Shown one piece after another: positions 9,309 through 55,192 of a stretch of 64,000 nucleotides of DNA (position 1 is the first letter of the stretch; each line of letters starts with the position of its first letter). This DNA comes from Haliclona indistincta (taxonomy: Eukaryota > Porifera > Demospongiae > Haplosclerida > Chalinidae). Under the pieces are notes generated by a model. The model was not told where the DNA came from and ran no database searches. It worked only from the letters and a program-made list of their open reading frames with translations. Both the position numbers and the translations under genes were made by a program. The stretch covers positions 1,038,888 through 1,102,887 of the forward strand of contig OZ024786.1 in NCBI GenBank assembly GCA_964017065.1, given 5' to 3'.

Positions 9309-9804
9309 GTGATAACTTTGAGCTGCCTTTTCTATCAATGTTTATTGTTTGTATCCAATCCTGAGATGAGTTTACCTGTGCATACCACACTACACAACAG
9401 TGTCAGTCCTACCATGACTGCTGTTCCAACACGTATGCATGTTTCTATCTTGTGATTCATACAGTCTTGCACATGTATACAGTTAATTCCACCATCTCTA
9501 TCATCATTGGTGCTACGGGATTGCTGTTACTTGTAACTGCAGTAGTTATTACTGGTATATTGTGCACGGCAGTTGCTATGAGACAAAAACAGCGCACTAC
9601 AGGTAAAATTGGCTAATATATAGGTTATAATTAATAAGTATATCTGTATCCTCAGGTGTTATTGATCATGTTCCAGTTGATGATAATCCTGCTTACATCA
9701 CAATGAAGAGGATCACCTTGAACAAGAACACTGCTTATGAGACTGTTAATATAAATGAGACTTTCAAAACGAGTGCAGTTTATGAGACTGTGTGCATTGA
9801 CTAA
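9309..9804 (+). pseudogene. Receptor array copy A: 3' relic (stalk, TM, tail exons)
   Basis: Only the 3' end of the receptor unit is present. The stalk segment (9350-9435) has lost its acceptor. The TM exon (9483-9602) and tail exon (9656-9804) are open and phase-matched. The tail keeps DDNPAYITM, NTAYETV and SAVYETV but ends VCID instead of VS or VL. No signal peptide, Ig or FN3 exon lies upstream, because the kinase gene ends at 8858. It is probably inert, although the TM and tail exons could be captured by an upstream transcript. Confidence 0.75.
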
Positions 9805-9884
9805 AAAGTGCTCGAATAACTTAGACTGTGAGGTTTTACTCATTTCATGTACTACAGTACATTGATATTAATTTTAATGTTCCC

Positions 9885-10976
9885 AAAAATGTGAGCGGAT
9901 TTGAGAAAAGGGGGCACTTTACTTCTGCAATTTTTGAACGAATTAACGCCTGTTTTCAAGTGGCGGTCAAACATTGCTGAAATTTGTTGTGTATACTATT
10001 TGATCATTCTGCTTGCTGTAGATCAAATTGTAAAGGCATGGTACTAAATTTGGATGAATGGCAGTAAGTGTGTTTAATAATAATGATAGTGGTTTCATTG
10101 TATTTTCAGAAAATAGTCATTTCGTTCGTGAAACTTAATAGAAAGTTGAAGAAACTTCTGTGTCATCAAAGCGGGAAAACATTCTTGTAGTCCCCATAAT
10201 TATTGAAGCAACTAGTTCAATATTATTTTGCCCGTGTGAATTCTTTAACTAAATTGGTAATCTGGAAAAGGCGCAAAATTTAATGGGCAAAATTATTTCT
10301 ACAATACGGCTGCACTATTATACATGTAAATTATTATTACAGATGAACTCTTCCACAGTTGTAAAATTTTCCCAAAAAAAAACAATAAAATGCACTCAAA
10401 TTTTTAGCACTCAAAATTTTAGTTGAAACTTAATTTTGTGGTAAGACAACAGAAAAGTTAACAATGATAATGGTAGTATTGCTAATCTTGTAGAAGGAGT
10501 TAATGAAGGTAAAGCTTAATTATAGTTAGAAGGACTCGAGTGGACACATAGTCAGCCAATTTTGTGTATTATCTAGTATCTCAGGTGCTGGGGTAAGTGG
10601 AGCTGTATTATGCTCAAGTACACTACTACCCAACTACTGATCAACCAGCAACTGTCAAAAACAAGAGCCAGCTCAGAGTGAAATACCACCTGTAGATGTA
10701 TTTTCAAGTACCAATGCTCATTAATTTTGTGAGTGGATTTGAGAAAGGGATATTTTGACGACCTATGCCTGTTTTCAAATAGCTGCTACTTGGTCAAACA
10801 TTACTGAAACTCAATAAAAATTGTTTATAATATTTGATCACTCTGCTTGCTGTGTAATGTGTAGAGCCATGGTACTAAATTCGGCTGAATGACAGCAAGT
10901 TGAAAACATGTGTGTTTGAAAATTGCACGAGAGGAGTGACCCCTTTTCTCGAATCTGCCCACATTTTGCTAGTCTT
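9885..10976. mobile_element. ~1.1-kb TIR element between copies A and B
   Basis: The left end AATGTGAGCGGATTTGAGAA matches, inverted and with a few mismatches, the right end TTCTCGAATCTGCCCACATT, giving a TIR of about 33 bp. Inside, the stretch starting at 9889 is repeated directly near 10728, suggesting a nested or duplicated copy. No ORF of note. The rest of 9805-11366 is ordinary array spacer that becomes the copy B 5' flank. Confidence 0.6.
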
Positions 10977-11366
10977 ATGCTATCGTTTTCCCATGTGGTC
11001 CTGTGGTTTTGACATTCGTTGCATGCACAATGAGTGATTGCACATGTTTTGGCATTGAATTATGGTTATTATTGAAACACAATTCTCTATTGTCAAAAAT
11101 TCTTAGGAGAAGCTTGCGAAAAATACTGCACTAACGAAAATATAGCAAATATGGCTCTGCTGTGGAACTCTCAAGTTGGTGCAAGTGCTTTTGGTCTGTT
11201 ATGCTTATGGAGGTGTCCCGTAAATGGAGGTGTCCCTTAAATGGACGTTCAATCACCATCTGTCAGATTATACTGTAGACCTCAAATGAGATTCATCACC
11301 CAACTAATGCCGTAGTTCCTGTTATGAAATCTTGATTCAACTCAGTCTGTTCATTATCGTGGCATC

Positions 11367-13409
11367 ATGAAATCAGCCATTGCGATTCTTCTCATATGGA
11401 TTACATGTATACATGCTACTGGTAAGTGTTATTGCAGTATTAGCTGACAACCATCAAACATGTATTTAAAACATAATCCTGTGTCACTGACTACCCTGGG
11501 AGGAATAAATGCTCAGTTTCATTGTAATGGAAATGGTACTGTTCTAGCATGGGAAGTAGATGGATTACCAAATAATGATCAGAGTATTGTGGATCGAGAA
11601 ATAACTGAACATACTGTATCACCATCATCAGGCACAATACAGTCCACCCTCACTGTACCAGCAACATCAGAGAATGATGGCACTACTGTGCGATGCTTTA
11701 TTGGTTCATCATTGTTCAGTTTAACATTAATCGGCAACTCCTCTACTCTCACTGTATTGCCAGGTCTATGTTACTATACAATACATTTGTTAGTGTTACT
11801 ATGAGTCTACAGGTATTGGTCCAGTTGTCAATGTGAGATTTAGCTTTTCATTCATCAGTCTATTGTGGGATCCTCCAGCAACTGCTGGTGTACTCAGTGG
11901 TCTCTCCTATGTAGTGATTGTGATGAACAACGACACTGGTCAAGTGATTGTCAGTGAAACTACCACCAACACCAACTATCCACTACCTGCTGGTCTCAAT
12001 ATGCCATGTCAGTACTACACAGCCAATGTGACAGCATTCTCATCTCAGCATCGTAGTGAGAGTGTGGTTACTGGGCAGAGAGTACCAGGAAGTGAGTGAC
12101 ACGTGTGGTACACTTTGTCCAAAGTTTGAAATCATGTTTTTTAGATTACTATGATCTGGTGAGTGTGTCCAAAATTATAGTTGTAGCCAGCCACAGCAAT
12201 ACTCAAGTTGCTGTTACTTTCACTATCAATATAGAACAGGTATATAGGTGCAATGATGACTTCAAATTTTTGTGATTTATGCCGGTTAATTCCTGTTATT
12301 GTAGCGAACTGCTCTAGTTTGTCCTGATCAAGATCTAGTGGCTGTGACATATCCAACATCAAACACTGAAAATAGAGTCACTCATGATGAAATGCCTCTA
12401 ACAACTGCTGGTGAAGTGAAATACACAGTCATTGTTGAAAGTGGATTTGACTTAGCATGTGATATTAAGATCATGGCTGATGACATATCTGTAGTTGATA
12501 TACAGACAGTTCTATTCAGTAAGTCATGACTAGTTAATGTTGTGTTATAATCTGGTCATACTGTGACAGGTTCCTATAATGTTCAAGAGTGTGATGTATC
12601 CAGTGACCAGCACACTAGCTCCATACTAGTGGAGTGTACATTTGCCATCAATTCAACAGCACCAGGGATTGTAGTGATACAAGATGACCAGAGTCAATAT
12701 ACCATCAACAAGACACTGCAGAGACTGCTGCAGGATAGTGATAAAGGATCTGTCAACATTACTGGTCTACCAGCAGGAGAGTATAGTGTGAGAGTATATG
12801 ACAACAGTCCAGTTACTGACAGCACTAGTGCTGCATATCAGCATTCTCAGTTAATACACATCATGGGACTACCTAAACCTTCATCTATTGTATTACATTC
12901 TGTTGTTTCTTCAGGTGCAATAACATTGAGCTGTCTTTTCTATCAATGTTTATTGTTTTTATTCGATCTATACAGACACATCCAATCCTGAGATGAGTTT
13001 ACCTGTGCATACCACACTACACAACAGTGTCAGTCCTACCATGCCTGCCTCTTCAACATGTATGCATGTTTTTATCTTGTGATTCATATAGTCTTGCACA
13101 TGTATACAGTTAATTCCACCACCTCTATCATCATTGCTGCTGCTGGATTGCTGTTACTGGTACTTGCTGCAGCAGTTATTACTGGTATATTGTGCACGGC
13201 AGTTGCTATGCGGAGACAAGACCACTATTATAGGTTATAATTGAGTAAGTATATCTGCATCATTAGGTGTTATTGATCATGTACCAGTTGATGATAATCC
13301 TGCTTACATCACAATGAAGAGGATCACCTTGAACAAGAACACTGCTTATGAGACTGTTAATATAAATGAGACTATCAATACTAGTGCAGTTTATGAGACT
13401 GTGTCATAA
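11367..13409 (+). CDS. Receptor array copy B: Ig/FN3 membrane receptor, splice sites damaged
   Basis: Exons by homology: signal 11367-11421; Ig about 11475-11763; FN3 11813-12091; 12145-12239; 12305-12518; 12570-12914; stalk 12976-13059; TM 13110 onward; tail 13267-13409. The signal peptide begins MKSAIAILLIW. Two lesions are visible. The acceptor before the Ig exon, TATAAGGTCC in sister copies, is ATAATCC here and has lost its AG. The TM exon lacks the usual donor (CACTACAGGTAA is deleted) and would run to a stop at 13238-13240, giving a tail-less protein. Because the flanking exons are phase 1, skipping the Ig exon stays in frame. It is either a decaying copy or a variant lacking the Ig domain and tail. 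Confidence 0.75.
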
Positions 13410-13699
13410 GCAACTAACATGAACATTGTCCTAGCTACTAGTAGACAGTTCCGGCAGCGCAGCAGTTGCAATGAGCCTGCTTAACTTGATTCTCTTATGG
13501 ATATAAGTCAGTGCATGACATATTAACTGTATAACAGCTTCTCAATGCTGGTTCAAATTTGCCGGACTGAACTAGCTGTAGATCAGAAAAAATAAACAGA
13601 CAACTATATAGCTAGGCCATCAGTTGGGCAATAGACCTTCTTTGAGGTCCTCTTGTTTGTACATGCAGGTAGTGTATCAATCATGCAGTTTTTATATAC

Positions 13700-13899
13700 T
13701 ATAGGGCTCAAATGAGATTCAACGCCCAAATGATGTCCTATAGTTGTCTGTTTATTTAATTCCTGTTGCCCTTGCTAGTTGTTTGTTTATCTTCCAACTG
13801 ATGACGTAGTTCTTGAATGCAGTTATGAAATCTTGTTGCAACTGAGTCTGTTTGTTATCGTGGTACAGTGTATCATGAAATCAGCAGTCACGATACTGT
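13700..13899 (+). pseudogene. Copy C, 5' fragment: promoter and truncated signal peptide
   Basis: The array's conserved 5' flank is present (CAACTGATGACGTAGTT, then GCAGTTATGAAATCTTG), followed by ATG at 13875 and MKSAVTIL. Homology stops near 13899 and a TGA follows at once. This is the severed 5' end of the unit whose 3' exons lie at 24229-24760. Between 13410 and 13700 is shortened 3' spacer of copy B with no other feature. Confidence 0.75.
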
Positions 13900-14473
13900 G
13901 AATGAGAGCTGTGATGATCAATCAGATCTTGAAATACTTAACCGTATCAAAGCCCTTCCATTATATAAAACCGTTCACTGCTAGCTACATGTAGTACAAA
14001 GGAACTGAATTGACCACACCTACTTCTGTATGCCTCATTATTATACTTTTTCTTCAGAGGAGATTGGAGTTCACTCTGCTTCTTGTCACCAAGGTACCGG
14101 TGAGTAAAACTAATTATTTACACATGATAATTTTCTGCCTTGTAGCTTCACACACTTCTGGTGTTATACTGTGTTATGCATAATTATGCTGGTGTAATTT
14201 TGCCGCATTTATTACTTTTGATTATGCACAGAAACACCATTGTCCAGGTCCTCTGAGAAGCCATTAATACACACCACTAATATATAGCCAGCAAGGTGAA
14301 TAAAATTTACTTACACCAAGATTACCAAGATAACTATCTTTGTTGTTGCTTCTATTGCGTATATAAACACAATGTATTTTTGCGTAAACACAATGTAACC
14401 ATGTTACATGCAAGTATGCAATAAATATATGCCTCATGAAATCTTTTAACTATTTGACTATGCATGCACAGAT

Positions 14474-15933: not shown

Positions 15934-18900
15934 ATGGTTAAGACATGGATCTTTCCTGTTACTTATTTGACCGTGATCTTTCGGCTTCAAAACATAGCAG
16001 CTGTGACAGAAAGTAAGCTGGTTTACTGACTAACTGGCAACGTGTCATGTATAGTATACGTCCACAATAATCAGCTGTTTCAATGTTTGCAAGCTTTTAG
16101 CTTGTCAGGCCGGCAAGATACCCTGACAGGCGCGTGTCCACGATAGGGCTCAGGGTGCATGCCTCTAGCACCCCCTCAACATTGATGAGCCAAATTCTTT
16201 CGCCTGAAACTTTCACAGAGACAGCCATGGGGCGCGAAACTTGCCGCGAAGCATGTTGACCTGCGTCCCTGCTCTGCCTGCGACTTTCAGCGAAATCTAT
16301 AAAGCGCGAAGTGCACGCGATCCCCGAAACGATCGATGTAGCAATTTTTGGCACCAGATTTCTCGACGTGTAGCGGTAGCAGGTCTACAAGAAACTAGAA
16401 GCTTCGAGCCAAGGACGTTACCGAGGGCTGGACCCAGCGTTATTTTCGATATTATCCTCGTGTCGCGAATTATCGTCGATGAACGGAAATTTTTGTGTAG
16501 TGACCCGCGTTTTAACAGTAGCGATGTGCACTAAAATGTTTAAACTGTCTGAATCAATTACTAGTTGTACTAGTTAGCTTCTGATAACCTTTAGCAGCAC
16601 ACAAATCTAAATTTCGTTAGAATCGGTGATAAAATGGCTGAGTTACAACGGTTTTTGTGGCGGTTACCGTGTGATTTTGTTCTCCAACAATTTTACATTA
16701 CAAAGCCGGCTTCCTGGTTACAGCGGCGCTGTTGCGCACTTCGTAGCATATGTATAGATGCAAAACAGTATGACACGACAGCCTGGGCTACGCTGACCTG
16801 TTCGGCATACTTATTGAAGCAAACTACGACCAGTCAGATCCACAACGAACGCTCGACCAGCAATTGCCTGTTACAGTATATGGCAAACAGGTCAGTTAGC
16901 ATGACACTCCAACTGTGTGCGACTTTGGAGCACGTTTGCACTTACCTAAACTGTTACTAATATCTTTGTAAGTGCTGGTCAGAAGCATTCTCCAAGTTTA
17001 ACTAACATTGCAAATGGTTTGACTATGAAAATAATTTTTGATTACCGAATTGCAGGGTTTTTTGATCTAGCTCGATTGATCATAGCAAAGCAGCATTGTT
17101 TCCAAGAATTATCTGCTTAAATTTCATAATTAGTTGGAATCAGCGTATCTGAAAACCTTGGGTGGTTTTTAGTCACTGAAACGGCACTCAGACGTCGCGC
17201 AAGACAATTTCTACTTTTTGAATTAGAAAAGGTGGAGACATTTCCGGCCGCATGACCATGCCCACGCACATCGCTATTAACAGTCATAAAAATACCTCAG
17301 TATAGGAGCAAATCTTCAAAAAGCGCTCCAAGTTGTTCGAAAACGCTATCTGATTGCGCTGCAGTCTTTGAAGTGTAGCTTCACGTTGAATTTATAACAA
17401 TGCGAAGCACTTTAGCACTGAGAAGGGCCCTGTAATTAACGTTACATAGTTTTTTCATACTACCCACGCATTTTTTCATACTACCCATGAATTTTCAATA
17501 ATTTTTGCATGCATTTGCAAAAAGTATTACCAGGCCCTCTTTTGGAGGGTCTATGAAAGAAACTAGTATGTTATGTATGTATGTATGTATTACTGCGTTC
17601 ACACAGGCATGTGAAGCAAGCCAGCCCAGGTCGGCGCGGGTAACTGGCACGCTATTTGGCTGCGTTCACACAGCAGCACGCAAGCGAGTTCGAGCTCGCT
17701 ACACACAATAATGAAGGGGCGGATACTTCCTGGTTAATAAAAGGATGGCTAAAATGGCGTCGAACGAAGAACTGCTCGTGCAGTTACGAGTAGGTAGGCG
17801 CGTTGTTTACTGCTTCGGAAGTACTTTTCTAAGCAGATATCATCAATAAACTAACCGCTGATTCTTGAAAGAAAAGTTTGTAAGCGGGCTGGCCCAGCTT
17901 CCGCGTTCACACAGCCACACGCGGCACGCTTACCCGGGTCAGACCCCATTCTGGCTCACTATTGGAAAGTGGGCTAATAAAGCTCGACTCGGCACGGCTC
18001 GGCTCGATTTGTGCCTGTTCACACAATAATTTTGTAAACGAGTTGGTGCGCGCCAACGCGAGCTGACCCGCGATCTCGTGCCTGTGTGAACGCAGTATAT
18101 GATGCAGGTTGTCCTGGATCGCCTCAGTTAGATTTGACTTTCAATAAGCTAAACTACGCCTTTGAACATCCATACACTTCCAATTCATCCACCCCAGTTG
18201 GGAATCTCACACTCTTTATACGGAAAGATTTTTTCACAGAAAATTTTGGTAACAGGACTTCAATAGGCTTAAATTTTCTTTTCATCGAGAGAGGCTACTT
18301 GGCAATAGATGGTGTGGAATGGGATTTTCCAATTGATGATGATGGTACACTTGGGATTGGGACACAACATCGAATATGGACACAACAGATTATGGCAGAA
18401 GTTACTATCAATAGCACTGAATATGAGGAGTGCATTTCTGAAAATACGGTATACCTCAGTATACCAGTGGTTTTCCTACTTCAAAAAGGCCCACGAGTAG
18501 TTGGACTTCGAAGATGGCATATTGATCTTTTAACAATATCTTCTGGTGAAATGACAATGGATGTTGCTCATTTTAATACAACAGTTGTCACTGTTGTTGC
18601 AAAGCCTGTTCAAAGTAAGCAGCATTATTGACTTTCTATTAATAATTGTTGTCTTCATTTATAGAGTGCAATCAGACACGTTACATCTTTGGAAATGACA
18701 CTTGTGTCACAGACTGTCCCAGTAATTTGAAGACATTTCCTGATTTTTGCCATGAATGTGAGTCACATCAATATGCTGTGTCTTATGTGACTCATTAAAT
18801 ATGAGAAGACTTGACTTGATTTAGGTCTCATGACCTTCAGAAATTTGTCTTCTGAAGTTACCCAATTATGTGTTAGCAGTTCATTGTTGACCATAATAAT

Positions 18901-22366: not shown

Positions 22367-22439
22367 GTCAGTGGTATCTTCATTTGCACATTGAATTATG
22401 TTGCATTATTATAGCCTTAAGTATTATACTCCTACAATA

Positions 22440-23994: not shown

Positions 23995-24228
23995 AAAAAT
24001 ACCACCTGACATCAGTGGCTGTGCACAAGCTGAATGCACTTCAGGTGTCAGCAGTCAACAGCAACTAGGTCAACCACAGCAGCCAATGATGTAGGGATCT
24101 ATGGTCTGTTAGCAAGTCAATCGTGTTACCATTCCATGCTTGTTCCTTGTTAGTTTACATTGTGAACCAGTGGTAGATTTCACAACCCTACATCCTTTTG
24201 ATTTCGATAGAAATCTTTTAATTTCTTT
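23995..24228 (+). mobile_element. Truncated element P end fused to copy C exon
   Basis: It matches one arm and the 3' end of element P (CATCAGTGGCTG, CCATTCCATGCTTGTTCC, ATCCTTTTGATTTCG). Its right edge directly joins the last 20 nt of receptor exon 6 (24229-24248). This is the junction at which the 3' half of copy C begins. Confidence 0.75.
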
Positions 24229-24760
24229 ACATTCTGTTGTTGCTTCAGGTGCAATAACATTGAGCTGACTTTTCTATCAATGTTTATTGTTTGCAGTCTA
24301 TACAGACACATCCAATCCTGAGATGAGTTCACCTGTGCATACCGCAGTACACAACAGTGTCAGTCCTACCATGCCTGCCTCTTCAACATGTATGAATGTT
24401 ATTATCTTGTGATTCATATAGTCTTGCACATGTATACAGTTAATTCCACCACCTCAATCATCATTGGTGCTACTGGATTGCTGTTACTGGTACTTGCTGC
24501 AGCAGTTATTACTGGTATATTGTGCACGGCTGTTGCTATGAGACAAACACAACACACTACAGGTAATATTGACTACTACAGATTATAATTGAGTAAGTAT
24601 TTCTGCATCATCATCAGGTGTTATTGACCATGTACCAGTTGATGATAATCCTGCTTACATCACAATGAGGAGGATCACCTTGAACAAGAACACTGCTTAT
24701 GAGACTGTTAATATAAGTGGAACTATCAATACTAGTGCAGTTTATGAGACTGTGTTATAA
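24229..24760 (+). CDS. Copy C 3' exons: stalk, TM and tyrosine tail (probable 3' end of chimeric receptor)
   Basis: An exon 6 remnant (24229-24248) is followed by the intact stalk exon 24297-24389, TM exon 24440-24562 and tail exon 24618-24760 (stop TAA). All are phase 1 and open. The stalk acceptor offers two AGs nine bases apart (24296 and 24305). The tail carries NPAYITM, NTAYETV and SAVYETV and ends ETVL. There is no Ig, FN3 or signal-peptide exon of its own. The nearest upstream phase-1 donor is that of the modular gene at 22366. Confidence 0.7.
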
Positions 24761-25761: not shown

Positions 25762-27815
25762 ATGAAATCAGCAGTCACGATCCTTTTTATATGGATCACA
25801 TGTACAAATGCTTCTGGTAAGTGTTGTTACAGTATACAGTACTAGCTGACAACCATCAAACATGTATTTTCTATAAGGCCCAGTGTCAGTGATTACTTTG
25901 GGAGGAACGAATGCTCAGTTTCATTGTATTGGCAGTGGTAATGTTCTAGCATGGGAAGTAGATGGATTACCAAATAATGATCAGAGTGTTGTGGATCGAG
26001 AAATAACTGAACATACAATATCATCATCAGGTACAGTACAGTCCACCCTCACTGTACCAGCAACATCAGAGAATGATGGCACTACTGTACGATGCTTTAT
26101 TGGTTCATCATTATTCAGTTTAACATTAGTCGGCAACTCCTCTACTCTCACTGTATTACCAGGTCTATGTTACAATACAATACATCTGTTAGTGTTACTA
26201 TGAGTCTACAGGTATTGGTCCAGTTGTCAATGTGAGGTTCAGTGTGTCATTCATCAGTCTACTGTGGGATCCTCCAGCAACTGCTGGTGTACTCAGTGGT
26301 CTCTCCTATATAGTGATTGTGATGAACAACAACACTGGTCAAGTGATTGTCAGTGACACTACCGTGGACACCAACTATCCACTACCTGCTGGTCTCGATA
26401 TGCCGTGTCAGTACTACACAGCTAATGTGACAGCATTCTCATCTCAGCATCATAGCGAGAGCGTGTTTACTGGACAGAGAGTACCAGGAGGTGAGTGACA
26501 CGTGCACAGGCTCAACTTGTTCAAATTATATTTTTAGATCATTATGGTTTTGTGAATGTGCCCAAAACTGTAGTAGCCAGCCAAGGTAATACTCAAGTCG
26601 CTGTTACTTTCACTATCAATATAGAACAGGTAATTAATGATGCATGCAATGATAACGAAAACATTATTGAGTGACAATTCCTGTCATTGCAGCGGACCCC
26701 TCAAGTTTGTCCCGATCAAGATCTGGTGGCTGTGACATATCCAACATCAAACACTGATAATAGAGTCACTCATGATGAAGTGCCTCTAGCATATGCTGGT
26801 GAAGTGGACTACACAGTCATTGTTGAAAGTGGACATCACTTAGCATGTGATATTAAGATCATGGCTGATGATATAACTGAAGTTGATATACAGACAGTTC
26901 TATTCAGTAAGTCATGACTAGTTAATGTAGTGTTATAATCTGGTCATACTGTGACAGGTTCCTATAATGTTCAAGACTGTGATGTATCCAATGACACTAG
27001 CTCCATACTAGTGGAGTGCACATTTGCCATCAATTCAACAGCACCAGGGATTGTAGTGATACAAGATGACCAGAGTCAATATTCCATCAACAAGACACTG
27101 CAGAGACTGCTGCAGGATAGTGATAAAGGATCTGTCAACATTACTGGTCTACCAGCAGGAGAGTATAGTGTGAGAGTGTATGACAACAGTCCAGCTACTG
27201 ACAGCACTAGTGCTGCATATCAGCATTCTCAGTTAGTACACATTATGGGACTGCATCAACCTTCATCTATTGTATTACATTCCGCTGTTGCTTCAGGTGC
27301 AATAACATTGAGCTGGCTTTTCACATCTATCAATGTTTATTGTTTGCAGTCTATACAGACACATCCAATGATGAGATGAGTTTACCTGTGCATACCACAG
27401 TACACAACAGTGTCAGTCCTACCATGCCAGCGGCCTCTTCAACATGTATGCATGTTTTGATCTTGTGATTCATATAGTCTTGCACATGTATACAGTTAAT
27501 TCCACCACCTCAATCATCATTGGTGCTACTGGATTGCTGTTACTGGTACTTGCTGCAGCAGTTATTACTGGTATATTGTGCACTGCTGTTGCTATGAGAC
27601 AAACACAACGCACTACAGGTAATATTGACTATTGTAGGTTATAACTCAGTTAGTATATATCTGTATCATCAGGTGTTATTGATCATGTACCAGTTGATGA
27701 TAATCCTGCTTACATCACAATGAAGAGGATCACCTTGAACAAGAACACTGCTTATGAGACTGTTAATATAAATGAGACTATCAATACAAGTGCAGTTTAT
27801 GAGACTGTATCATAA
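25762..27815 (+). CDS. Receptor array copy D: Ig/FN3 membrane receptor, intact (541 aa)
   Basis: Exons: 25762-25816, 25878-26162, 26212-26490, 26538-26629, 26693-26906, 26958-27296, 27350-27445, 27496-27618, 27673-27815. All phases close, giving 541 aa. Residues 1-18 are a signal peptide (MKSAVTILFIWITCTNAS); 19-113 an Ig-like domain (FHC, LAWEVDG, DGTTVRC); 114-206 an FN3-like domain (LLWDPP, ANVTAFSS); 207-421 an unassigned ectodomain, whose second half (exon 6) is nearly identical in every copy; 422-453 a Ser/Thr/Pro stalk; about 457-485 the TM helix. The tail has Y508 in NPAYITM (NPxY plus YxxM), Y522 in TAYETV and Y537 in VYETV. N-glycosylation sequons include NSS, NVT, NST and NIT. Predicted role: single-pass surface receptor; ligand and partners unknown. 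Confidence 0.88.
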
Positions 27816-31783: not shown

Positions 31784-33861
31784 ATGAAATCAGCAGTCAA
31801 AATCCTTTTCGTATGGATTACGTGTACAAATGCTACTGGTAAGTGTTGTTACGTACATACTAGTTGTCAATATTATAACATGTATAAGGTCCTGTGTCAG
31901 TTACCACTCTGGGAGGAACGAATGCTCAGTTTCATTGTAATGGCAGTGGTACTGTTCTAGCATGGGGAGTAGATGGATTACCACTGAATCACCAAAACAT
32001 TGTGGATCGAGAAATAACTGAACATACAGTAGTATCATCATCAGGCACAGTACAGTCCACCCTCACTGTACCAGCAACATCAGAGAATAATGGAACTACT
32101 GTACGATGCTTTATTGGTCAATCTTTGTTCAGTTTAACATTAGTTGGCAACTCCTCTACTCTCACTGTATTGCCAGGTCTATGTTACTATACAATACATC
32201 TGTTAGTGTTACTATGAGTCTACAGGTATTGGTCCAGTTGTCAATGTGAGGTTCAGTGTTTCATTCATCAGTCTGTTGTGGGATCCTCCAGCAACTGCTG
32301 GTGTACTCAGTGGTCTCTCCTATATAGTGATTGTGATGAACAACACTGGTCAAGTGACAGTCAATGGTACTACCAACAAGACCAACTATCCACTACCTGC
32401 TGGTCTCAATATGCCGTGTCAGTACTACACAGCTAATGTGACAGCATTCTCATCTCAGCATCATAGTGAGAGCGTGGTTACTGGACAGAGAGTACCAGGA
32501 GGTGAGTGACACATGTGGTCCACTTTGTCCAAAGTTTATACAAAATCATTAATTTTAGAATACTATGATCTGGTGAATGTATCCAAAATTATAGTAGTCA
32601 GCCACAGCTCTACTCAAGTTGCTGTTACTCTCACTATCAATACAGAACAGGTATAGCTAGCTATACATGTGCAGACAATGATGACTTTAAAATTTTATGT
32701 TTTATGCCGGTTAATTCCATTTATTGTAGCGGACTGCTCACGTTTGTCCTGATCAAGATCTGCTGGTTGTAACATATCCAACATCAAACACTGATAATAG
32801 AGTCACTCATGATGAGATACCTCTAACAAATGCTGGTGAAGTGGACTATACAGTCATTGTTGAAAGTGGATATCACTTAGCATGTGATATTAAGATCATG
32901 GCTGATGACATAATTGAAGTTGACATAAAGACAGTTCTATTCAGTAAGTCATGACTAGTTAATGTAGTGTTATAATCTGGTCATACTGTGACAGGTTCCT
33001 ATAATGTTCAAGACTGTGATGTATCCAGTGACCAGCACACTAGCTCCATACTAGTGGAGTGTACATTTGCCATCAATTCAACAGCACCAGGGATTGTAGT
33101 GATACAAGATGACCAGAGTCAATACACCATCAACAAGACACTGCAGAGACTGCTGCAGGATGGTAATAAAGGATCTGTCAACATTACTGGTCTACCAGCA
33201 GGAGAGTATAGTGTGAGAGTGTATGACAACAGTCCAGCTACTAACAGCACTAGTGCTGCATATCAGCATTCTCAGTTAATACACATCATGGAACTGCCTA
33301 AACCTTCATCTACATGTATTGTATTACATTCTGTTGTTTCTTCAGGTGCGATAACATTGAGCTGCCTTTCTATCATTGTTTATTGTTTGTATTCAATATA
33401 CAGACACATCCAATCCTGGGATGAGTTTACCTGCGTATACCACACTACACAACAGTGTCAGTCCTACCATGACTGCCTCTTCAACATGTATGCATGTTAT
33501 TATCTTGTGATTCATATAGTCTTGCACATGTATACAGTTAATTCCACCACCTCAATCATCATTGCTGCTACTGGATTGCTGTTACTGGTACTTGATGCAG
33601 CAGTTATTACTGGTATATTGTGCACGGCTGTTGCTATGAGACAAAAACAGCACACTACAGGTAATAGTGACTATTGTAGGTTATAATTGAGTTAGTATAT
33701 CTGTATCATCATCATTAGGTGTTATTGATCATGTTCCAGTTGATGATAATCCAGCTTACATCACAATGAAGAGGATCACCTTGAACAAGAACACTGCTTA
33801 TGAGACTGTTAATATAGATGAAACTATCAATACAAGTGCAGTTTATGAGACTGTGTCATAA
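31784..33861 (+). CDS. Receptor array copy F: Ig/FN3 membrane receptor, intact (541 aa)
   Basis: Exons: 31784-31838, 31889-32176, 32226-32501, 32559-32650, 32730-32943, 32995-33345, 33404-33487, 33538-33660, 33719-33861. Phases close throughout. Signal peptide MKSAVKILFVWITCTNAT; Ig domain with PLNHQNIVDREITEHT in the variable loop; FN3 one codon shorter than copy D (MNNTGQ). Exon 6 is longer by 6 nt (DQH) and by a further 6 nt (TACATG inserted near 33311). The TM helix has a unique Asp (LLVLDAAVITG) where sisters have Ala. The tail has all three Tyr motifs and ends ETVS. An intramembrane Asp may affect partner association or may simply be a destabilising change. Confidence 0.88.
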
Positions 33862-35401: not shown

Positions 35402-37415
35402 ATGAAATCAACAGTCATGATCCTTTTCATATGGATTACGAGTACAAATGCTACTGGTAAGTGATATTACGTACTAGTTGACAGTATTATAACATGTATA
35501 AGGTCCTGTGTCAGTTACCACTCTGGGAGGAATGAATGCTGAGTTTCATTGTAATGGCAGTGGAACTTTTCTGGTTTGGGAAATAGATGGATTACAAATC
35601 ACTGATCAAATCATTGAGAATCGAGGAATTACTGATGATACAGTATCATCATCAGGCACAGTACAGTCCACTCTCACTGTACCAGCAACACAAGAGAACA
35701 ATGGAACTACTGTACGATGCTTAATTGGTCCATCATTGTTCAGTTTGACATTAATCGGCAACTCCTCTACACTGACTGTATTGCCAGGTTTAGTATAATC
35801 ATGTTACTATGTACAAGGGTTAATATGAGTTTATACAGGTATTGGTCCAGTTGTCAATGTGAGGTTCAGTGTGTCATTCATCAGTCTATTGTGGGATCCT
35901 CCAGCAACTGCTGGTGTACTTAGTGGTCTCTCCTATATAGTGATTGTGATGAACACTGGTCAAGTGATTGTCAGTGACACTACCACCAACACCAACTATC
36001 CATTGCCAGTTATCAAGTCATGTCAGTACTACACAGCTAATGTGACAGCATTCTCATCTCAACATCATAGTGAGAGTGTGGTTATTGGGCAGAGAGTACC
36101 AGGAGGTGAGTGACAAGTGTGGTTCACTTTGTCCAAAGTTTATGTTTTTAGATTACTATGATCTAGTGAGTGTGTCTAAAATTATAGTAGCCAGCCACAG
36201 CACTACTCAAGTTGCTGTTACTCTCACTATCAATACAGAACAGGTATATAGGTGTATCAATTGATGTCATTAAATTTTATGTTCTATGATAATTAATTTT
36301 ATTTTAGCGGACAGCTCATGTTTGTCCTGATCAAGATCTGGTGGCTGTGACATATCCAATATCAAACACTGATAATAGAGTCACTCATGATGAGATACCT
36401 CTAGCACATGCTGGAGCAATGGACTACACAGTCATTGTTGAAAGTGGATATTTGATTGTATGTGATATTAAGATCATGGCTGATGATTTAACTGAAGTTG
36501 ACATACAGACAGTTCTATTCAGTAAGTCACTAGTTAATGTAGTGTTATATTCTGGTCATACTGTGACAGGTTCCTATAATGTTCAAGACTGTAGTGACCA
36601 GCACACTAGCTCCATACTAGTGGAGTGTACATTTGCCATCAATTCAACAGCACCAGGGATTGTAGTGATACAAGATGACCAGAGTCAATATACCATCAAC
36701 AAGACACTGCAGAGACTGCTGCAGGATAGTGATAAAGGATCTGTCAACATTACTGGTCTACCAGCAGGAGAGTATAGTGTGAGAGTGTATGACAACAGTC
36801 CAGCTACTGACAGCACTAGTGCTGCATATCAGCATTCTCAGTTAATACACATTATGGGACTACCTAAACCGTCATCTATTGTAATACATTCTGCTGTTGC
36901 TTCAGGTGCAATAACATTGAGCTGCCTTTCCATCAATGTTTGTTGTTTGTATTCTATATAGACACATCCAATCCTGAGATGAGTTTACCTGTGCATACCA
37001 CAGTACACAACAGTGTCAGTCCTACCATGCCTGCCTCTTCAACATGTATGCATGTTATTATCTTGTGATTCATATAGTCTTGCACATGTATACAGTTAAT
37101 TCCACCACCTCAATCATCATTGCTGCTACTGGATTGCTGTTACTGGTACTTGCTGCAGCAGTTATTACTGGTATATTGTGCACGGCTGTTGCTATGAGAC
37201 AAAAACAACACACTACAGGTAATATTGACTATTATATAGGTTATAATTTAGTAAGCATATCTTCATCATCAGGTGTTATTGATCATGTGCCAGTTGATGA
37301 TAATCCTGCTTACATCACAATGAAGAGGATTACCTTGAACAATAACACTGCTTATGAGACTGTTAATATAAATGAAACTATCAATACTAGTGCAGTTTAT
37401 GAGACTGTGTCATAA
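35402..37415 (+). CDS. Receptor array copy G: Ig/FN3 membrane receptor, intact (532 aa), most divergent ectodomain
   Basis: Exons: 35402-35456, 35503-35787, 35839-36105, 36152-36243, 36308-36521, 36570-36905, 36962-37045, 37096-37218, 37273-37415. Phases close. The Ig loop differs most from its sisters (LQITDQIIENRGITDDT). The FN3 is four codons shorter at two loops (MNTGQ; PLPVIKSCQYY). Two introns, 36522-36569 (48 nt) and 37219-37272 (54 nt), are multiples of three without in-frame stops, so retaining either gives an uninterrupted variant. Tail motifs NPAYITM, NTAYETV and SAVYETV are present; the C-terminus is ETVS. The promoter is interrupted by the element at 34719-35338. Confidence 0.87.
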
Positions 37416-42870: not shown

Positions 42871-43362
42871 TCAATTCTGGCGCCTTTTCCTGTTCTTTTT
42901 TTTAGCATGGTGTACTGCACCAGCTACAATTCCTGCACCAGCTCCTCCTCCGCCTGCTGCACCTACTGCGGCCCCAATCCCTCCACCGATAAGGGCTCCA
43001 ACCATTGCCCCCATAGCTGTTCCAGGACCAGGGACGATACTTCCAACAAGCGAACCGATACCCACACCTATACTAGCTCCTGTAGCTCCTCCAACTCCGC
43101 CTACCAATAGTCCTGCTGATATACCACCCAATGCTGCACCACCGATGTAGTCTATACGATCACTCCTTGCACGCCTATCATCAACGTAGCGATCCTCTAC
43201 CTTATCAGTAAATGGAACTTCCTCTTTAGATTTTGTCTTGTACGTTGCTCCACCGACCGTAGCCTTTGGCACACCTGAGATTCCAGTGTCTACTTGCATT
43301 TCTCCTAAATCGACGCTAGTTTCGTTTTCTCGTCGTAGTTGCCCGCGGCCATTAGCACTCAT
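42871..43362 (-). CDS. Glycine-zipper protein, 163 aa, carried by the composite transposon
   Basis: A single open exon. The N-terminal half (to about residue 75) is charged (SVDLGEMQVDTG, EVPFTDKVEDRYVDDRRA). Residues about 77-145 are a long run of GxxxG/GxxxA motifs (GGAALGGISAGLLVGG, GAMVGALIGGGIGAAVG) expected to form one or two membrane-inserting helical hairpins. The C-terminus is basic (HHAKKKNRKRRQN). Broken homologues of the C-terminal part lie in both transposon arms. I do not recognise a family with a known function; glycine-zipper segments occur in pore- and membrane-associated proteins. It may be a captured host gene or the element's own accessory gene. The start is the first Met of the frame. 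No intron is visible. The stretch 42338-42870 is AT-rich with no feature. Confidence 0.6.
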   Translation of the reverse strand: MSANGRGQLRRENETSVDLGEMQVDTGISGVPKATVGGATYKTKSKEEVPFTDKVEDRYVDDRRARSDRIDYIGGAALGGISAGLLVGGVGGATGASIGVGIGSLVGSIVPGPGTAMGAMVGALIGGGIGAAVGAAGGGGAGAGIVAGAVHHAKKKNRKRRQN

Positions 43363-43389
43363 GATTCAGCCTCGAGACCGGCGCCAAGC

Positions 43390-48065: not shown

Positions 48066-50662
48066 CACTTGTAAGAAGAGGATTGAGGAGTTGCAGGATC
48101 AACACTGCCGGCTCGAATTGTAGGAAGTATTGTACCTGGTCCTATAGAACACTTTGGGTTAGTAGTTGGAGCAACCATCTGTGGAGGGATCACAAACTGC
48201 AGCAAATCCGGGAATTGCAGTTGGTGCAATACACGATACTAAAACAAAAACAGGAAAAAGGGCCAGAAGCAAACAGTGATGACCTGTCATGCTAGACATT
48301 CTAAGGGATTATGTAAACAAATAAGTTGGCAGAAATCCACTGTTGAGGACAGACTGCATGTTATTGTACAAACAATCAATAGGATAAACTTCCTGCATGC
48401 CATCAGTATAGTTGTAAACACTATTTTGATGAAGCAGCAGTGGGTGATATTTATCTGTGGAGGGATCACAAGCTGTTGCAGAAGTTAATCCGGGAGTTAA
48501 AATGGGTGCAATACACCACCATGCTAAAACAAAAACAGGAAATGGCCAGGAGCAAGAAGTGATGACCTGTCATGCTATATTATTGGTACAATCAACAGCC
48601 AATAAGAGTTTAAATTTCCTGCCATCAGTCTAGTTGTAAACACTATTCTGGTGAAGCAGCAGTGGGTGATATTTCAGGAGAACAAGGCACAGGAGTCAGA
48701 GGAGCTACTGGAGCTAGTATAACTATTGATAATGTCGTTGGTGGTATTGTCGGTAGCCTATCAGACTAAGAACAGGAAAAGCGCTTCCAAATAAAGTATC
48801 ATTAACAGTGTTGCATGTGCATGTAAAGGTATGTCCATTTACCGGCTATAATTATTGTGATGTTAGTAGTAATAATGTTTATGTCATGTGATGTTCAACA
48901 CAACACATGTATACGTACAATCACATAATGAGGCAGTATTCTTGGTGTGTGTACGGTCTGTGTACTGTTTGTCCAATCAATTTTTGCTTCTAGACAGACT
49001 GACCAGAGTCAATATACCATCAACAAGACACTGCAGAGACTGCTGCAGGATAGTGATACAATATTACTGGTCTACCAGCAGGAGAGTATAGTGTGAGAGT
49101 GTATGACAACAGTCCAGCTACTGACAGCACTAGTGCTGCATATCAGCATTCTCAGTTAATACACATTATGGAACTACCTAAACCTTCATCTATTGTAATA
49201 CATTCTGTTGTTGCTTCAGGTGCAATAACTTTGAGCTGCCTTTTCTATCAATGTTTATTGTTCGCAGTCTATATAGACACATCCAATCCTGTGATGAGTT
49301 TACCTGTGCATACCACACTACACAACAGTGTCAGTCCTACCATGCCTGCCTCTTCAACATGTATGCATGTTATTATCTTGTGATTCATATAGTCTTGCAC
49401 ATGGATACAGTTCATTCCACCATCTTAATCATCATTGCTGCTATTGGATTGCTGTTACTGGTACTTGCTGCAGCAGTTATTACTGGTATATTGTGCACGG
49501 CAGTTGCTATGAGACAAACACAACGCACTACAGGTAATAATTATTGACTACTATAGCTTATAATTGAGTAAGTATATCTTCATCATCAGGTGTTATTGAT
49601 CATGTTCCAGTTGATGATAATCCTGCTTACATCACAATGAGGAGGATCACCTTGAACAAGAACACTGCTTATGAGACTGTTAATGTAAATGAAACTATCA
49701 ATACGAGTGCAGTTTATGAGACTGTTTTATAAGCAACTAACATTGTGGCTCTAGCTAATAGTAGACGGTTACAGTGCAGCAGTTGCAATGAGCTTAACTT
49801 GATCCTCTTACGGATAAGTCAATGCATGACATAATCATTACCAAACCCACATTTCAAATTTCAAATTCGGTCATCTTAACGAAATAAAATTATTTTTACA
49901 TTCACAAAATTTTGAACTCTGTGCTACAGTTTTACCATAAATTTTTCCAAGATAATTATAGTGATATTAATATTTTTATGCCTGATTTTTTTATTAACAA
50001 TAATTCGGTGATACATGTCATGGTAAGACAACACAGATCTAACGATGCATGCTAGATGTTATTTTGAATCGTGTTGGTGAGCTTCACCTCTATGATGTAG
50101 GATAATCATAATAGTTAAAAGTACTCGAATTGATGCTCGGGAAGAATTCTATTGCCTTTTAGGGAATGCAAAGTCAGTCGAATTATGTAGTTTGTAATCT
50201 CAGGTGCTGGGGGTGAGAAGGGGTAAGTGGGACTGTATTATGCTCAAGAACACCACTCTTTTAGGAGGAGTTTACTTGTGGTGTGCTCTCCTTTAACCCA
50301 CTGTGCTCCTATTGTTTTGACAGTCAATGCATGTAGAATTGAGTGTGTGCACATCACATACACACAATGTAGCATAATAAGTTTCGGCTTTGAATTATTA
50401 AGATATAATTCTCTAGGCTATAGTGTCAAAAATTATCCAGAGAAGCTTTCGAGAATACTGAACATGAAAATTATGACCACAGTGGAAACTCTCTTTTGAG
50501 GACAAGTTGCTGCTATGTGCAACTGGAACTGTCAACACCATAGAGTATACTGTATGTATAACCATAGACCTCAAATGAGATACATTGCCCAACTGATGAC
50601 GTAGTTTCTGAATGCAGTTATGAAATCTTGTTGCAACTGAGTCTGTTCATTATCGTGGTATC

Positions 50663-52702
50663 ATGAAGTCAGCAGTAGCGACACTTCTTATATGGATTAC
50701 GTGTACAAATGCTTCTGGTAAGTGATATTACGTACTAGTTGACAATATTATAGCATGTTTAAGGTCCAGTGTCACTGACTACCCTGGGAGGAACGAATGC
50801 TCAGTTTCATTGTAGTGGAAGTGGTACTGTTCTAGCATGGGAAGTAGATGGATTGCCACTGAACCACCAAAACATTGTGGATCGAGAAATAACTGAACAC
50901 ACAGTAGTATCATCACCAGGCACAGTACAGTCCACCCTCACTGTACCAGCAACATCAGAGAATGATGGCACTACTGTACGATGCTTTATTGGTCCATCTT
51001 TGTTCAGTTTAACATTAGCCGGCAACTCCTCAACTCTCACTGTATTGCCAGGTTTAGTATAATGTTACTACAATACATACTAAAGGTTACTATCATGAGT
51101 CTACAGGTATTGGTCCAGTTGTCAATGTGAGGTTCAGTGTGTCATTCACCAGTCTATTGTGGGATCCTCCAGCAACTGCTGGTGTACTCAGTGGTCTCTC
51201 CTATATAGTGATTGTGATGAACAACACCACTGGTCAAGTGATTGTCAGTGACACTACCACCAACACCAACTATCCACTACCAGCTCTTGAGTTGTGTCAG
51301 TACTACACAGCCAATGTGACAGCATTCTCATCTCAGCATCATAGTGAGAGCGTGGTTATTGGACAGAGAGTACCAGGAGGTGAGTGACACGTGTGGTTCA
51401 CTTTGTCCAAAGGTTTAATAATCATGTTTTTAAGAATACTATGATCTAGTGAATGCGTCCAAAACTGTAGTAGTCAGCCTCAGCACTACTCAAATTGCTG
51501 TTACTTTCACTATCAATACAGAACAGGTATATAGGTGCAGGCAATGATGACATTAAATTTTATGTTTTTTGACAATTCCTGTTACAGCGTACCGCTTTAG
51601 TTTGTCCTGGTCAAGGTCTAGTGGCTGTGACATATCCAACATTAAACACTCACAACAGAGTCACTCATGATGAAATTCCATTAACATATGCTGGTGCAGT
51701 GGACTACACAGTCATTGTTGAAAGTGGATATTTCGTTACATGTGATATTAAGATCATGGCTGATGATACAACTGAAGTTGACATAAAGACACTTCTATTC
51801 AGTAAGTCACTAGTTAATGTAGCGTTTAATCTGCTCATACTGTGACAGGTTCCTATAATGTTCAAGACTGTGATGTATCCAGTGACCAGCACACTAGCTC
51901 CATACTAGTGGAGTGTACATTTGCCATCAATTCAACAGCACCAGGGATTGTAGTGATACAAGATGACCAGAGTCAATATACCATCAACAAGACACTGCAG
52001 AGACTGCTGCAGGATAGTGATAAAGGATCTGTCAACATTACTGGTCTACCAGCAGGAGAGTATAGTGTGAGAGTGTATGACAACAGTCCAGCTACTGGCA
52101 GCACTAGTGCTGCATATCAGCATTCTCAGTTAATACACATCATGGAACTACCTAAACCTTCAGCTATTGTGTTACATTCTGTTGTTGCTTCAGGTGCGAT
52201 AACATTGAGCTGCCTTTCCATCAATGTTTATTGTTTGTATTCTCTATAGACACATCCAATCCTGAGATGAGTTTACCTGTGCATACCACACTACACAACA
52301 GTGTCAGTCCTACCATGCCTGCCTCTTCAACATGTATGCATGTTATTATCTTGTGATTCATTATAGTGTTGCACATGGATACAGTTAATTCCACCACCTC
52401 AATCATCATTGCTGCTACTGGATTGCTGTTACTGGTACTTGCTGCAGCAGTTATTACTGGTATATTGTGCACGGCAGTTACTATGAGACAAACACAACAC
52501 ACTACAGGTAATATTGACTATTATAGGTTATAATTGAGTTAGTATATCTGTATCATCAGGTGTTATTGATCATGTTCCAGTTGATGATAATCCTGCTTAC
52601 ATCACAATGAAGAGGATCACCTTGAACAAGAACACTGCTTATGAGACTGTTAATATAAATGAAACTATCAATACTAGTGCAGTTTATGAGACTGTGTCAT
52701 AA
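50663..52702 (+). CDS. Receptor array copy J: Ig/FN3 membrane receptor, intact (538 aa)
   Basis: Exons: 50663-50717, 50764-51051, 51107-51379, 51435-51526, 51588-51801, 51849-52193, 52250-52333, 52385-52507, 52560-52702. All phases close, giving 538 aa. Signal peptide MKSAVATLLIWITCTNAS; Ig loop PLNHQNIVDREITEHT; FN3 shortened at the second loop (PLPALELCQYY). Exon 5 has CPGQGL where sisters have CPDQDL. The TM helix lacks charged residues. The tail has NPAYITM, NTAYETV and SAVYETV and ends ETVS. A poly(A) signal lies about 150 nt downstream. Same predicted role as copy D. Confidence 0.88.
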
Positions 52703-53588
52703 GCAACTAATATGAATATTGATTGCAGTCCTAGCTACTAGTAGACGGTTTCAGCTCAGCAGTTGCAATGAGCTTAACTTGATTCTCTTACGGACAAGTC
52801 AGTCCATGACATAATTATTACCGAACACAAATTTCAAATTTGGTCATCTTAACGAAATAAAATTATTTTTTCGTTGAAAAAAGTTAACTCTGTGCTACAA
52901 AGAATCAGTTTTATCATTTCCCAAGAAAAAATAGTGATTCTATTTATGGCTGATTTTTTAACAATAATATACAATTCGGTGCTACATGTCAAACTTGCAC
53001 TGTAAGACAACACAGATCTATGTTAGATGTTTTTTAATCGTGTTGGTGAGCTTCACCTCTCAGGTGCTGGAGGGTGGGAGGTATAAGTGGGGCAGCATTA
53101 TGCTCAAGAACACCACTCTTTTACGAGGAGTTTATTTGTGGTGTGTGGAATAGTTTAACCCACTGTGCTCCTATTGTTTTGACAGTCTATGCATGTATAA
53201 TTGAGCGTATGCACATCATATAGCATATGTTTTGGCCTTGAATTATTAGGATAATTATAATTCTTTATAGGCTAGTGTCAAAAAATCAAATATTCTCCCG
53301 AGAGGCTTTCGAGAATACTGCATGAACATGAAAAGTTATGACCACAGTGGGAACTCTCTTTTGAGGACAAGCTGCTGCAAAGTGCTTAAAGAGGGTCATT
53401 GTTATACATCAGAAAGTATGACAGCTTCTCAATGCTGGTTCAGTTTGAGAACTAGAGCTTTCAACACCATAGAGTGTATACAACATTGAATAGACCTCAA
53501 ATGAGATACATTGGCCAACTGATGACGTAGTTTCTGAATGCAGTTATGAAATCTTGATGTAACTGAGTCTGTTCATTATCGTGGTGTC

Positions 53589-55192
53589 ATGAAATCAGCA
53601 GTAGCGATACTTCTTATATGGACTACATGTATACATGCTACTGGTAAGCGCTATTAAGTACTAGTTGACAGTACGTAATTTTTATAACATGTATAAGGTC
53701 CTGCATCAGTTACCACTCTGGGAGGAACGAATGCTCAGTTTTTTTGTAATAGCAGTGGCACTGTTCTAGTTTGGGAAGTAGATGGATTACCAAATAATGA
53801 TCAGAGTATTGAGAATAGAGGGATAACTGGACATACAGTATCATCATCAGGCACAGTACAGTCAACTCTCACTGTACCAGCAACATCAGAGAATGATGGC
53901 ACTACTGTGCGATGCTTTATTGGTCCGTCATTTTTCAGTTTAACATTAGTCGGTAACTCCTCTACACTGACCGTCTTGCCAGGTTTAGCCTATATTTATG
54001 TTACTATGTACAAGGGTAAATATGAGTCTACAGGTATTGGTCCAGTTGTCAATGTCAGGTTCAGCGTGTCATTCATCGTTCTATTGTGGGATCCTCCAGC
54101 AACTGCTGGTGTACTCAGTGGTCTCTCCTATATAGTGATTGTGATGAACAACAACACTGGTCAAGTGATTGTCAGTGACACTACCGTGGACACCAACTAT
54201 CCACTACCTGATGGTCTCAATATGCCATGTCAGTACTACACAGCTAATGTGCATGACAGCATTCTCATCTCAGCATCACTGTGAGAGTGTAGTTACTGGA
54301 CAGAGAGTACCAGGAGGTGAGTGACACGTGTGGTTCACTTTGTCCAAAGTTTATAAAATCATTAATGTTTAGAATACTATGATCTAGTGAATGTATCCAA
54401 AATTATAGTAGTCAGCCACAGCACTACTCAAATTGCTGTTACTTTCACTATCAGTATAGACCAGGTATACAGAATGACATTAAATTTTATGTTTTATGAC
54501 AATTCCATTTATTGTAGCGGGCCGCTCAAGTTTGTCCTGATCAAGATCTGGTGGCTGTGACATATCCAACATCAAACTCTGAAAATAGAGTCACTCATGA
54601 TGAAATACCTCTAACATATGCTGGTGAAGTGAACTACACTGTCATTGTTGAAAGTGGATATCACTTAGCATGTGATATTGCGATCATGGCTGATGATATA
54701 ACTGCATGTAGTTGACGTAAAGACAGTTCTATTCAGTAAGTCATGACTAGTTGATGTTGTGTTATAATCTGCTCATACTGAGACAGGTTCCTATAATGTT
54801 CAAGACTGTGATGTATCCAGTGACCAGCACACTAGCTCCATACTAGTGGAGTGTACATTTGCCATCAATTCAACAGCACCAGGGATTGTAGTGATACAAG
54901 TTGACCAGAGTCAATATACCATCAACAAGACACTGCAGAGACTGCTGCAGGATTGTGATAAAGGATCTGTCAACATTACTGGTCTACCAGCAGGAGAGTA
55001 TAGTGTGAGAGTGTATGACAACAGTCCAGCTACTGACAGCACTAGTGCTGCATATCAGCATTCTCAGTTAATACACATTATGGGACTGCTTCAATCTTCA
55101 TCTATTGTAATACATTCTGTTGTTGCTTCAGGTGCAATAACAATGAGCTGCCTTTTCTATCAATGTTTATTGTTTTTATTCTATATAGAAAC
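53589..55192 (+). pseudogene. Receptor array copy K: frameshifted, 3'-truncated
   Basis: Pieces: 53589-53643, 53698-53982, 54034-54316, 54373-54464, 54518-54735, 54787-55131. The signal peptide and Ig are open. FN3 has a CATG insertion (54252-54255) and exon 5 has another (54705-54708); both shift the frame. After exon 6, homology stops near 55192 within the stalk exon start, and the TM and tail are missing. It is the distal end of the array in this window. Confidence 0.85.

What the first reader, a model, noticed from the sequence alone, without database searches (positions are those of the whole stretch)
9309..55192. Tandem array of Ig/FN3 membrane receptors with immunoreceptor-like tails in a sponge-like genome
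Seven full-length or near full-length units (B, D, E, F, G, H, J) plus partial ones (A, C, K), all on one strand at a ~3.0-kb period. Each encodes signal peptide, Ig-like domain, FN3-like domain, further ectodomain, TM and a three-tyrosine tail. Four copies are intact, the rest are decaying. Tandem, rapidly turning-over Ig receptors with tyrosine tails are the pattern seen in invertebrate allorecognition and immune loci (for example Hydractinia Alr). Structure is seen directly; an allorecognition or immune role is inference.
Basis: partly seen in the sequence, partly recalled or inferred. Interest (0 to 1): 0.88.

Follow-up and report, generated by a model that had tools for sequence, protein, structure and literature searches.

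The report
Giant sponge Ig receptor gene family
This stretch of a sponge genome holds part of a family of more than a hundred related cell-surface receptor gene copies whose outer parts differ while one inner part and the signalling tail stay nearly the same, a pattern expected of a recognition system, possibly one that tells self from non-self.

Summary
The window carries ten copies or fragments (A-H, J, K; 9349-55131, + strand) of a nine-exon gene; four are intact (D, F, G, J; 532-541 aa): signal peptide, Ig, FN3, two further ectodomain blocks, TM, three-tyrosine tail. Three more intact copies lie nearby; the seven show pN/pS 0.50, so they look functional. The array is an outlier of a genome-wide family: 114 tail-exon and 125 exon-6 matches, reversed controls 0; 75 of 98 exact tail matches sit in 1.13 Mb of another chromosome. 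A silicatein-like fragment marks a siliceous sponge. New: about 280 nt of membrane-proximal exon 6 are nearly identical across chromosomes (median silent difference 0.06, against 0.32-0.46 in Ig, FN3 and exon 5), best read as interlocus gene conversion. Of 24 tails, all carry NPxY, YxxM and an ITSM-like site, 5 a strict ITIM, none a strict ITAM. It resembles regional homogenisation in clustered protocadherins, in unrelated proteins. Best reading: diversified recognition receptors with a shared platform domain and shared output. An allorecognition or immune role stays inference; expression and variation between individuals were not testable.

The parts
9349..9793 (+). Unit A: 3' fragment, exons 7-9 (stalk, TM, tail)
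   Evidence: exon-7 start extrapolated; the tail pattern occurs here
11367..13409 (+). Unit B: all nine exons recognisable, damaged at exon-2 acceptor and end of exon 8
24227..24760 (+). Unit C: 3' fragment, end of exon 6 plus exons 7-9
25762..27815 (+). Unit D: intact nine-exon receptor gene, 538 aa
28747..30790 (+). Unit E: nine exons, 4-nt frameshift in TM exon 8
31784..33861 (+). Unit F: intact reference copy, 541 aa
31784..31838 (+). Unit F exon 1: signal peptide
   Evidence: signal peptide judged by eye
31889..32176 (+). Unit F exon 2: Ig domain
   Evidence: fold of the 51-53% identical relative P0001
32226..32501 (+). Unit F exon 3: FN3 domain
32559..32650 (+). Unit F exon 4: first part of an unassigned ectodomain block
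32730..32943 (+). Unit F exon 5: diverging ectodomain block
32995..33345 (+). Unit F exon 6: membrane-proximal domain with the homogenised tract at about +10 to +290 of the exon
33404..33487 (+). Unit F exon 7: stalk
33538..33660 (+). Unit F exon 8: transmembrane segment
   Evidence: TM judged by eye
33719..33861 (+). Unit F exon 9: tail with NPAYITM, NTAYETV and SAVYETV
35402..37415 (+). Unit G: intact, 532 aa
38367..49732 (+). Unit H: broken copy, stop in the Ig exon and split by insertions
50663..52702 (+). Unit J: intact, 538 aa
53589..55131 (+). Unit K: exons 1-6 with frameshifts in exons 3 and 5; exons 7-9 not found

Best explanation
The array encodes type I membrane receptors of a family of at least about 114 copies and fragments in a siliceous sponge, centred on a 1.13-Mb cluster on another chromosome. 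Shown: gene structure, Ig and FN3 domains, family size, diverged outer domains, a nearly identical exon-6 tract across chromosomes, a conserved tyrosine-tail core. Inferred: the Ig, FN3 and exon-5 parts make each receptor's own contacts. The exon-6 domain next to the membrane is a common platform, kept interchangeable by interlocus gene conversion, perhaps for cis pairing or a shared partner. Ligand contact leads to phosphorylation of the tail, whose YxxM, NPxY and TxYxxV motifs recruit SH2 and PTB proteins (PI3K-type, SHP2-type; an SHP2-like gene exists in this genome). The whole is a diversified surface recognition repertoire with one shared output. Recognition of self/non-self or of microbes is the likeliest use but is not shown.
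For: Seven intact copies with pN/pS 0.50, codon-bootstrap 0.40-0.62. Family: 114 tail and 125 exon-6 matches with up to 3 mismatches, reversed-pattern control 0 in both; 98 and 77 of the listed matches are exact. Median silent difference C4 against other loci: exon 2 0.416, exon 3 0.320, exon 5 0.464, exon 6 0.059, tail 0.176; exon-6 pN/pS 0.80, so not protein constraint. Identity of 22 other loci to unit F averages 0.89-0.98 per 20-nt window inside the tract and 0.40-0.72 around it. Incompatible site pairs in exon 6 0.21-0.42, against at most 0.087 in 399 usable simulations without recombination. Exon-5 subfamilies split by 100/100 branches of 0.54 and 0.87 changes per site; no starred branch in the exon-6 tree. 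Tail motifs in 24 of 24. SH2 at 90 places and a 577-aa ORF with two SH2 domains and a phosphatase signature.
Against: No expression, ligand or polymorphism data. Average pN/pS is below 1 in every exon; ratios above 1 only in a few short windows. The neighbour-incompatibility test is not significant in any of five exons, and exons 2, 3 and 5 have incompatible fractions as high as exon 6 (0.28-0.40 against 0.30), so that measure is not special to exon 6. GC3 of exon 6 is not raised. The AU test does not reject one C4 clade for exons 3, 5 or 6 (p 0.15-0.20). Exon-6 distances keep a weak correlation with exons 2 and 5 (r 0.24, 0.35). One copy examined (L039) escapes homogenisation (72 of 285 sites differ). 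No strict ITAM.
Confidence: 0.5

Rival explanations
1. An innate receptor family for microbes or symbionts, with the same mechanics but no role in self/non-self recognition between sponges.
For: Large, unstable clustered families with diverging ectodomains are common for pathogen receptors (recalled); the evidence fits equally well.
Against: Nothing here separates the two; the sequence cannot decide.
Confidence: 0.25
2. An ordinary adhesion or developmental Ig receptor family that grew by tandem duplication, with no recognition repertoire; differences between outer domains are mostly drift.
For: pN/pS is below 1 in every exon on average; no exon-wide positive selection; many broken copies.
Against: Family size and clustering and the contrast between outer domains and exon 6 are more than plain duplication gives.
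Confidence: 0.15
3. Exon 6 stays alike because its nucleotides are constrained (an RNA or regulatory element) or because it is an exonised repeat that spread recently, and not through gene conversion.
For: Changes are spread over codon positions (51, 39, 48 variable sites), GC3 is not raised, the tract has near-fixed ends, and copies differ little from one majority sequence (0-11 of about 290 sites, except L039).
Against: Incompatible sites beyond simulations without recombination (uniform rates assumed); the tract is coding and in frame inside a longer exon in 29 of the 30 exon-6 sequences compared, and the divergent L039 still has the same domain, so the exon is older than the homogenisation.
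Confidence: 0.25
4. The window array is mostly a dead relic and only the C3 cluster works.
For: Six of the ten copies in the window are broken or partial.
Against: Seven C4 copies keep start, stop, frame and splice sites, with pN/pS 0.50.
Confidence: 0.1

Closest known systems
Clustered protocadherins of vertebrates (fugu; PMC1852091, passages seen)
   Same: Tandem receptor family in which the membrane-proximal ectodomain is homogenised at silent sites while the distal domains diverge.
   Different: Unrelated domains (no cadherin match); full genes and not variable exons joined to shared constant exons; homogenisation reaches other chromosomes; no GC3 rise here, unlike fugu.
Hydractinia Alr family in the allorecognition complex (PMC11876637, passages seen; 41 members reported in PMC11999971, passages seen)
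   Same: Clustered Ig membrane receptor family with many copies and pseudogenes, on one main chromosome with a few outliers.
   Different: Sponge and not cnidarian; no sequence relation tested; polymorphism, homophilic binding and genetic effect are unknown here; about three times as many copies and fragments.
Sponge aggregation factors (recalled) and sponge Ig adhesion molecules and receptor kinases of Geodia (partly recalled; PMC11999971 passages mention a Geodia Ig adhesion molecule)
   Same: Sponge surface or matrix molecules tied to recognition; Ig domains in the Geodia proteins.
   Different: No Calx-beta domain and no kinase in these receptors; here a tyrosine tail and a large cluster.
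Mammalian Ig receptors with tyrosine tails (KIR, CEACAM, CD300, SLAM, CD28; recalled, some titles in the listing)
   Same: Ig receptors, clustering, gene conversion in some, ITSM- or YxxM-type tail motifs.
   Different: No strict ITAM in 24 tails and strict ITIM in 5 of 24; no evidence of common descent.

Membership tests
Immunoglobulin superfamily | Ig fold with core Cys-Trp-Cys | tested here: met
Immunoglobulin superfamily | Match to a Pfam Ig model above its curated cut-off | tested here: inconclusive
   Unit F below cut-off (16.0 against 21 bits for C2-set_2); among 30 members best E 2.1e-4 for ig, with 14 of 30 at E 1 or better; cut-offs of the other members were not shown
Fibronectin type III | FN3 sequence profile in exon 3 | tested here: met
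   Profile matches PTPRF 2edy (9.3e-5) and titin (7.2e-6) (that these stretches are FN3 is recalled); Pfam fn3 in 15 of 21 members, best 1.6e-5, unit F below cut-off
Immunoreceptors with ITAM or ITIM | Strict ITAM or ITIM in the tail | tested here: not met
   ITAM 0 of 24, ITIM 0 of 11 C4 tails (5 of the 13 others)
Immunoreceptors of ITSM or YxxM type | TxYxxV/I and YxxM in the tail | tested here: met
   24 of 24; motif only, binding not tested; L029, outside the 24, lacks YxxM
Hydractinia Alr | Sequence relation to Alr1 or Alr2 | not tested
   No Alr sequence was used
Hydractinia Alr | Allelic polymorphism that decides fusion or rejection | not testable with these tools
   Needs individuals and grafts
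Clustered protocadherins | Cadherin repeats | tested here: not met
   Pfam scan of unit F up to E 1 gave one weak unrelated match
Clustered protocadherins (mode of evolution) | Regional homogenisation of the membrane-proximal ectodomain at silent sites, with raised GC3 | tested here: inconclusive
   Homogenisation met; GC3 rise not met
Sponge aggregation factors | Calx-beta domains in the gene | tested here: not met
   None in unit F; Calx-beta is found only in the separate upstream gene

The most novel reading that the evidence does not exclude
This is a sponge self/non-self recognition complex: more than a hundred Ig-FN3 receptor copies whose outer domains diversify while a single membrane-proximal cassette is kept nearly identical across chromosomes by gene conversion, so that all receptors share one pairing or co-receptor surface and one SH2-coupled tail. 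It would be an invention parallel to protocadherins and Alr, built from different parts.
Probability: 0.3. Interest if true: 0.92.

Novelty: new variant of a known kind. Interest (0 to 1): 0.72.

Why it matters
The genes behind sponge self/non-self recognition remain debated (recalled). A mapped family of over 100 receptor copies, mostly in one cluster, with outer domains, platform exon and tail already separated by their rates of change, gives a concrete candidate locus for grafts, crosses and population sequencing. It is also a case of exon-limited homogenisation across chromosomes, far from the vertebrate examples, for asking why membrane-proximal domains are kept alike while recognition domains diverge.

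Tried and rejected
Rejected or unresolved. (1) Protein-level purifying selection as the cause of exon-6 identity: rejected, silent sites are nearly as conserved as the rest. (2) GC-biased conversion: GC3 of exon 6 is 0.34-0.36, against 0.38-0.42 in exon 3 and 0.24-0.33 in exons 2 and 5, so no clear rise. (3) PHI-like neighbour test: not significant in any of five exons. (4) AU tests do not reject the C4 copies as one clade (p 0.201, 0.154, 0.189). (5) Positive selection: no exon above 1 on average; short windows above 1 in exons 2, 3, 5 and 9, the last gap-rich. (6) Fold of exons 5-6: model useless, mean pLDDT 34; in the P0001 model only the Ig part is confident. (7) Species: none of the 11 sponge assemblies listed has a length of 144.03 Mb in its abstract; a search for that length gave no match; chromosome lengths sought in two papers were not found. 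(8) Alleles: 121 of the proteins found were held (501 matched, 120 listed); 15 match held loci at 99-100% and the next best is 93%, but only the loci held were compared. P0002 matches C3 at 100%; P0001 has 60% in its best row, with short rows up to 82%: another species or a missing haplotype, not resolved. (9) In print: no description of this family was seen in the search listings; only openly licensed papers are held. Of papers I saw passages of PMC11999971, PMC1852091 and PMC11876637, nothing but an empty term search of PMC12398682 and PMC12166358, and of the rest only listings with the start of the abstract.

Rows left out before counts: one search used 12 named C4 copies (A, C and the fragment at C4 1002741 were not among them) and, per exon, dropped those with frameshift, stop or partial match (partial exon 5 kept) and other loci under 80% coverage, E above 1e-3 or with a stop. 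The second run left out L039 (L029 was not in that alignment). Alignment A6 left out L032 and L043 and shortened L040; it was not used further. An earlier count said 78 exact exon-6 matches; the recount is 77.

Full report
What is there. The repeat is real. Unit F gives nine exons with GT/AG ends and one frame of 541 aa: signal peptide, Ig, FN3, an unassigned block of exons 4-5, the exon-6 domain, stalk, TM and tail. In the window eight copies have exon 1 and two are 3' fragments; D, F, G and J are intact. In the 136 kb of C4 examined outside the window lie five further copies or fragments, three of them intact. The seven intact copies code for 532-542 aa, are 86-91% identical in protein and have pN/pS 0.50 (codon bootstrap 0.40-0.62).

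Which organism. The window lies in a 144-Mb genome of 46 contigs. A fragment on C10 (L051) reads QGECCSSYAF where other cathepsin-like genes of this genome read QGSCGSCWAF; serine in place of the catalytic cysteine is the silicatein signature (recalled), so this is taken as a siliceous sponge. The species was not identified.

The family. A protein search gave 163 exon matches, with 80 of 679 first-look candidates scored, so a lower bound; most listed ones lie on C3 2.85-3.98 Mb. A tail-exon pattern with up to 3 mismatches matched 114 places, control 0; 98 are exact: 75 in that C3 stretch, 1 at C3 16.2 Mb, 14 on C4 (9 in the window), 6 on C6, 2 on C7. An exon-6 55-mer matched 125 places, control 0; of the 100 listed, 77 are exact. 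These counts include broken copies and perhaps assembly duplicates.

Where copies differ. Median silent differences between C4 and other loci are 0.416, 0.320 and 0.464 in exons 2, 3 and 5, but 0.059 in exon 6 and 0.176 in the tail exon (9-11 C4 and 13-22 other sequences per exon). Replacement and silent sites of exon 6 are nearly alike (pN/pS 0.80), so protein constraint is not the cause. Against unit F, 22 other loci average 0.89-0.98 identity per 20-nt window from about +10 to +290 of the exon, 0.46-0.71 just before and 0.72 falling to 0.40 after, still inside the exon. Incompatible site pairs (0.21-0.42) exceed all of 399 usable simulations without recombination. Trees of exons 3 and 5 show subfamilies on 100/100 branches that exon 6 lacks. 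I read this as interlocus gene conversion that reaches across chromosomes. Against it: GC3 is not clearly raised, the neighbour test is not significant in any exon and incompatibility is as high in exons 2, 3 and 5, AU tests do not reject one C4 clade, and weak distance correlation with exons 2 and 5 remains. Nucleotide-level constraint is the main rival.

The tail. In 24 of 24 tails with enough match the core carries NPAYITM (NPxY and YxxM) and a TxYxxV site; beyond it the end varies, with 3 to 5 tyrosines in all. Strict ITAM 0 of 24, strict ITIM 5 of 24. Outside the 24, L029 has YVTV and L030 ends after two tyrosines. The genome has SH2 matches at 90 places and a 577-aa ORF with two SH2 matches and, by eye, a phosphatase signature, so readers for such tails exist.

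How it may work. Variable outer domains bind, the common exon-6 domain pairs or docks, the tail signals. The last two steps, and any self/non-self role, are inference. The closest parallel in mode of evolution is the protocadherin cluster (PMC1852091, passages), the closest in biology perhaps Hydractinia Alr (PMC11876637, passages). Membership in neither is claimed.

Verdict. New are the family scale and the exon-limited homogenisation, for which no description was seen in ten literature searches of an open-licence library.

Noticed in passing
41406-42262 and 48143-48999: Terminal inverted repeats of 857 nt, 98% complementary, bound an insertion in exon 6 of unit H; exon-6 pieces overlap by about 11 nt, which fits a target-site duplication. 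A glycine-rich ORF (42874-43365, -) lies inside, with no Pfam match.
   Followed up: partly
1111-8375 (+): Upstream of the array, exon-like ORFs with Calx-beta domains (1111-1422, 1371-1619, 6505-6753) and tyrosine-kinase pieces (7629-7880, 8088-8375): perhaps one Calx-beta receptor kinase gene.
   Followed up: partly
18038-18628, 21162-21641, 21769-22437 (+); 59408-60079 (-): Long open frames between and after receptor copies without a Pfam match; they look secreted or extracellular by eye.
   Followed up: no
19927-20226 and 20654-20953: A 99% identical direct repeat 727 nt apart; also three 93% copies at 4194-5860.
   Followed up: no
13875-13890 (and C4 996924): Two isolated 16-nt exact matches to the start of exon 1, followed by the same unrelated sequence: remnants of copies or a repeat that carries them.
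   Followed up: no
L041 (C1 16374201-16377400) and C3 2871103-2872566: Family members on C1 and C3 with identical scores in three searches, and similar pairs at C3 16.20-16.28 Mb: recent duplication or assembly artefact, so counts may be slightly high.
   Followed up: no
L045 433-2166 (-), L046, L047: SHP2-like genes: an open 577-aa ORF with two SH2 domains and a phosphatase signature on C9, a second tandem-SH2 place beside it, and a split version on C2; perhaps retrocopies.
   Followed up: partly
L031, L032, L033, L038, L043: In these C3 copies the Ig and FN3 parts lie in one exon without the intron that C4 copies have.
   Followed up: no
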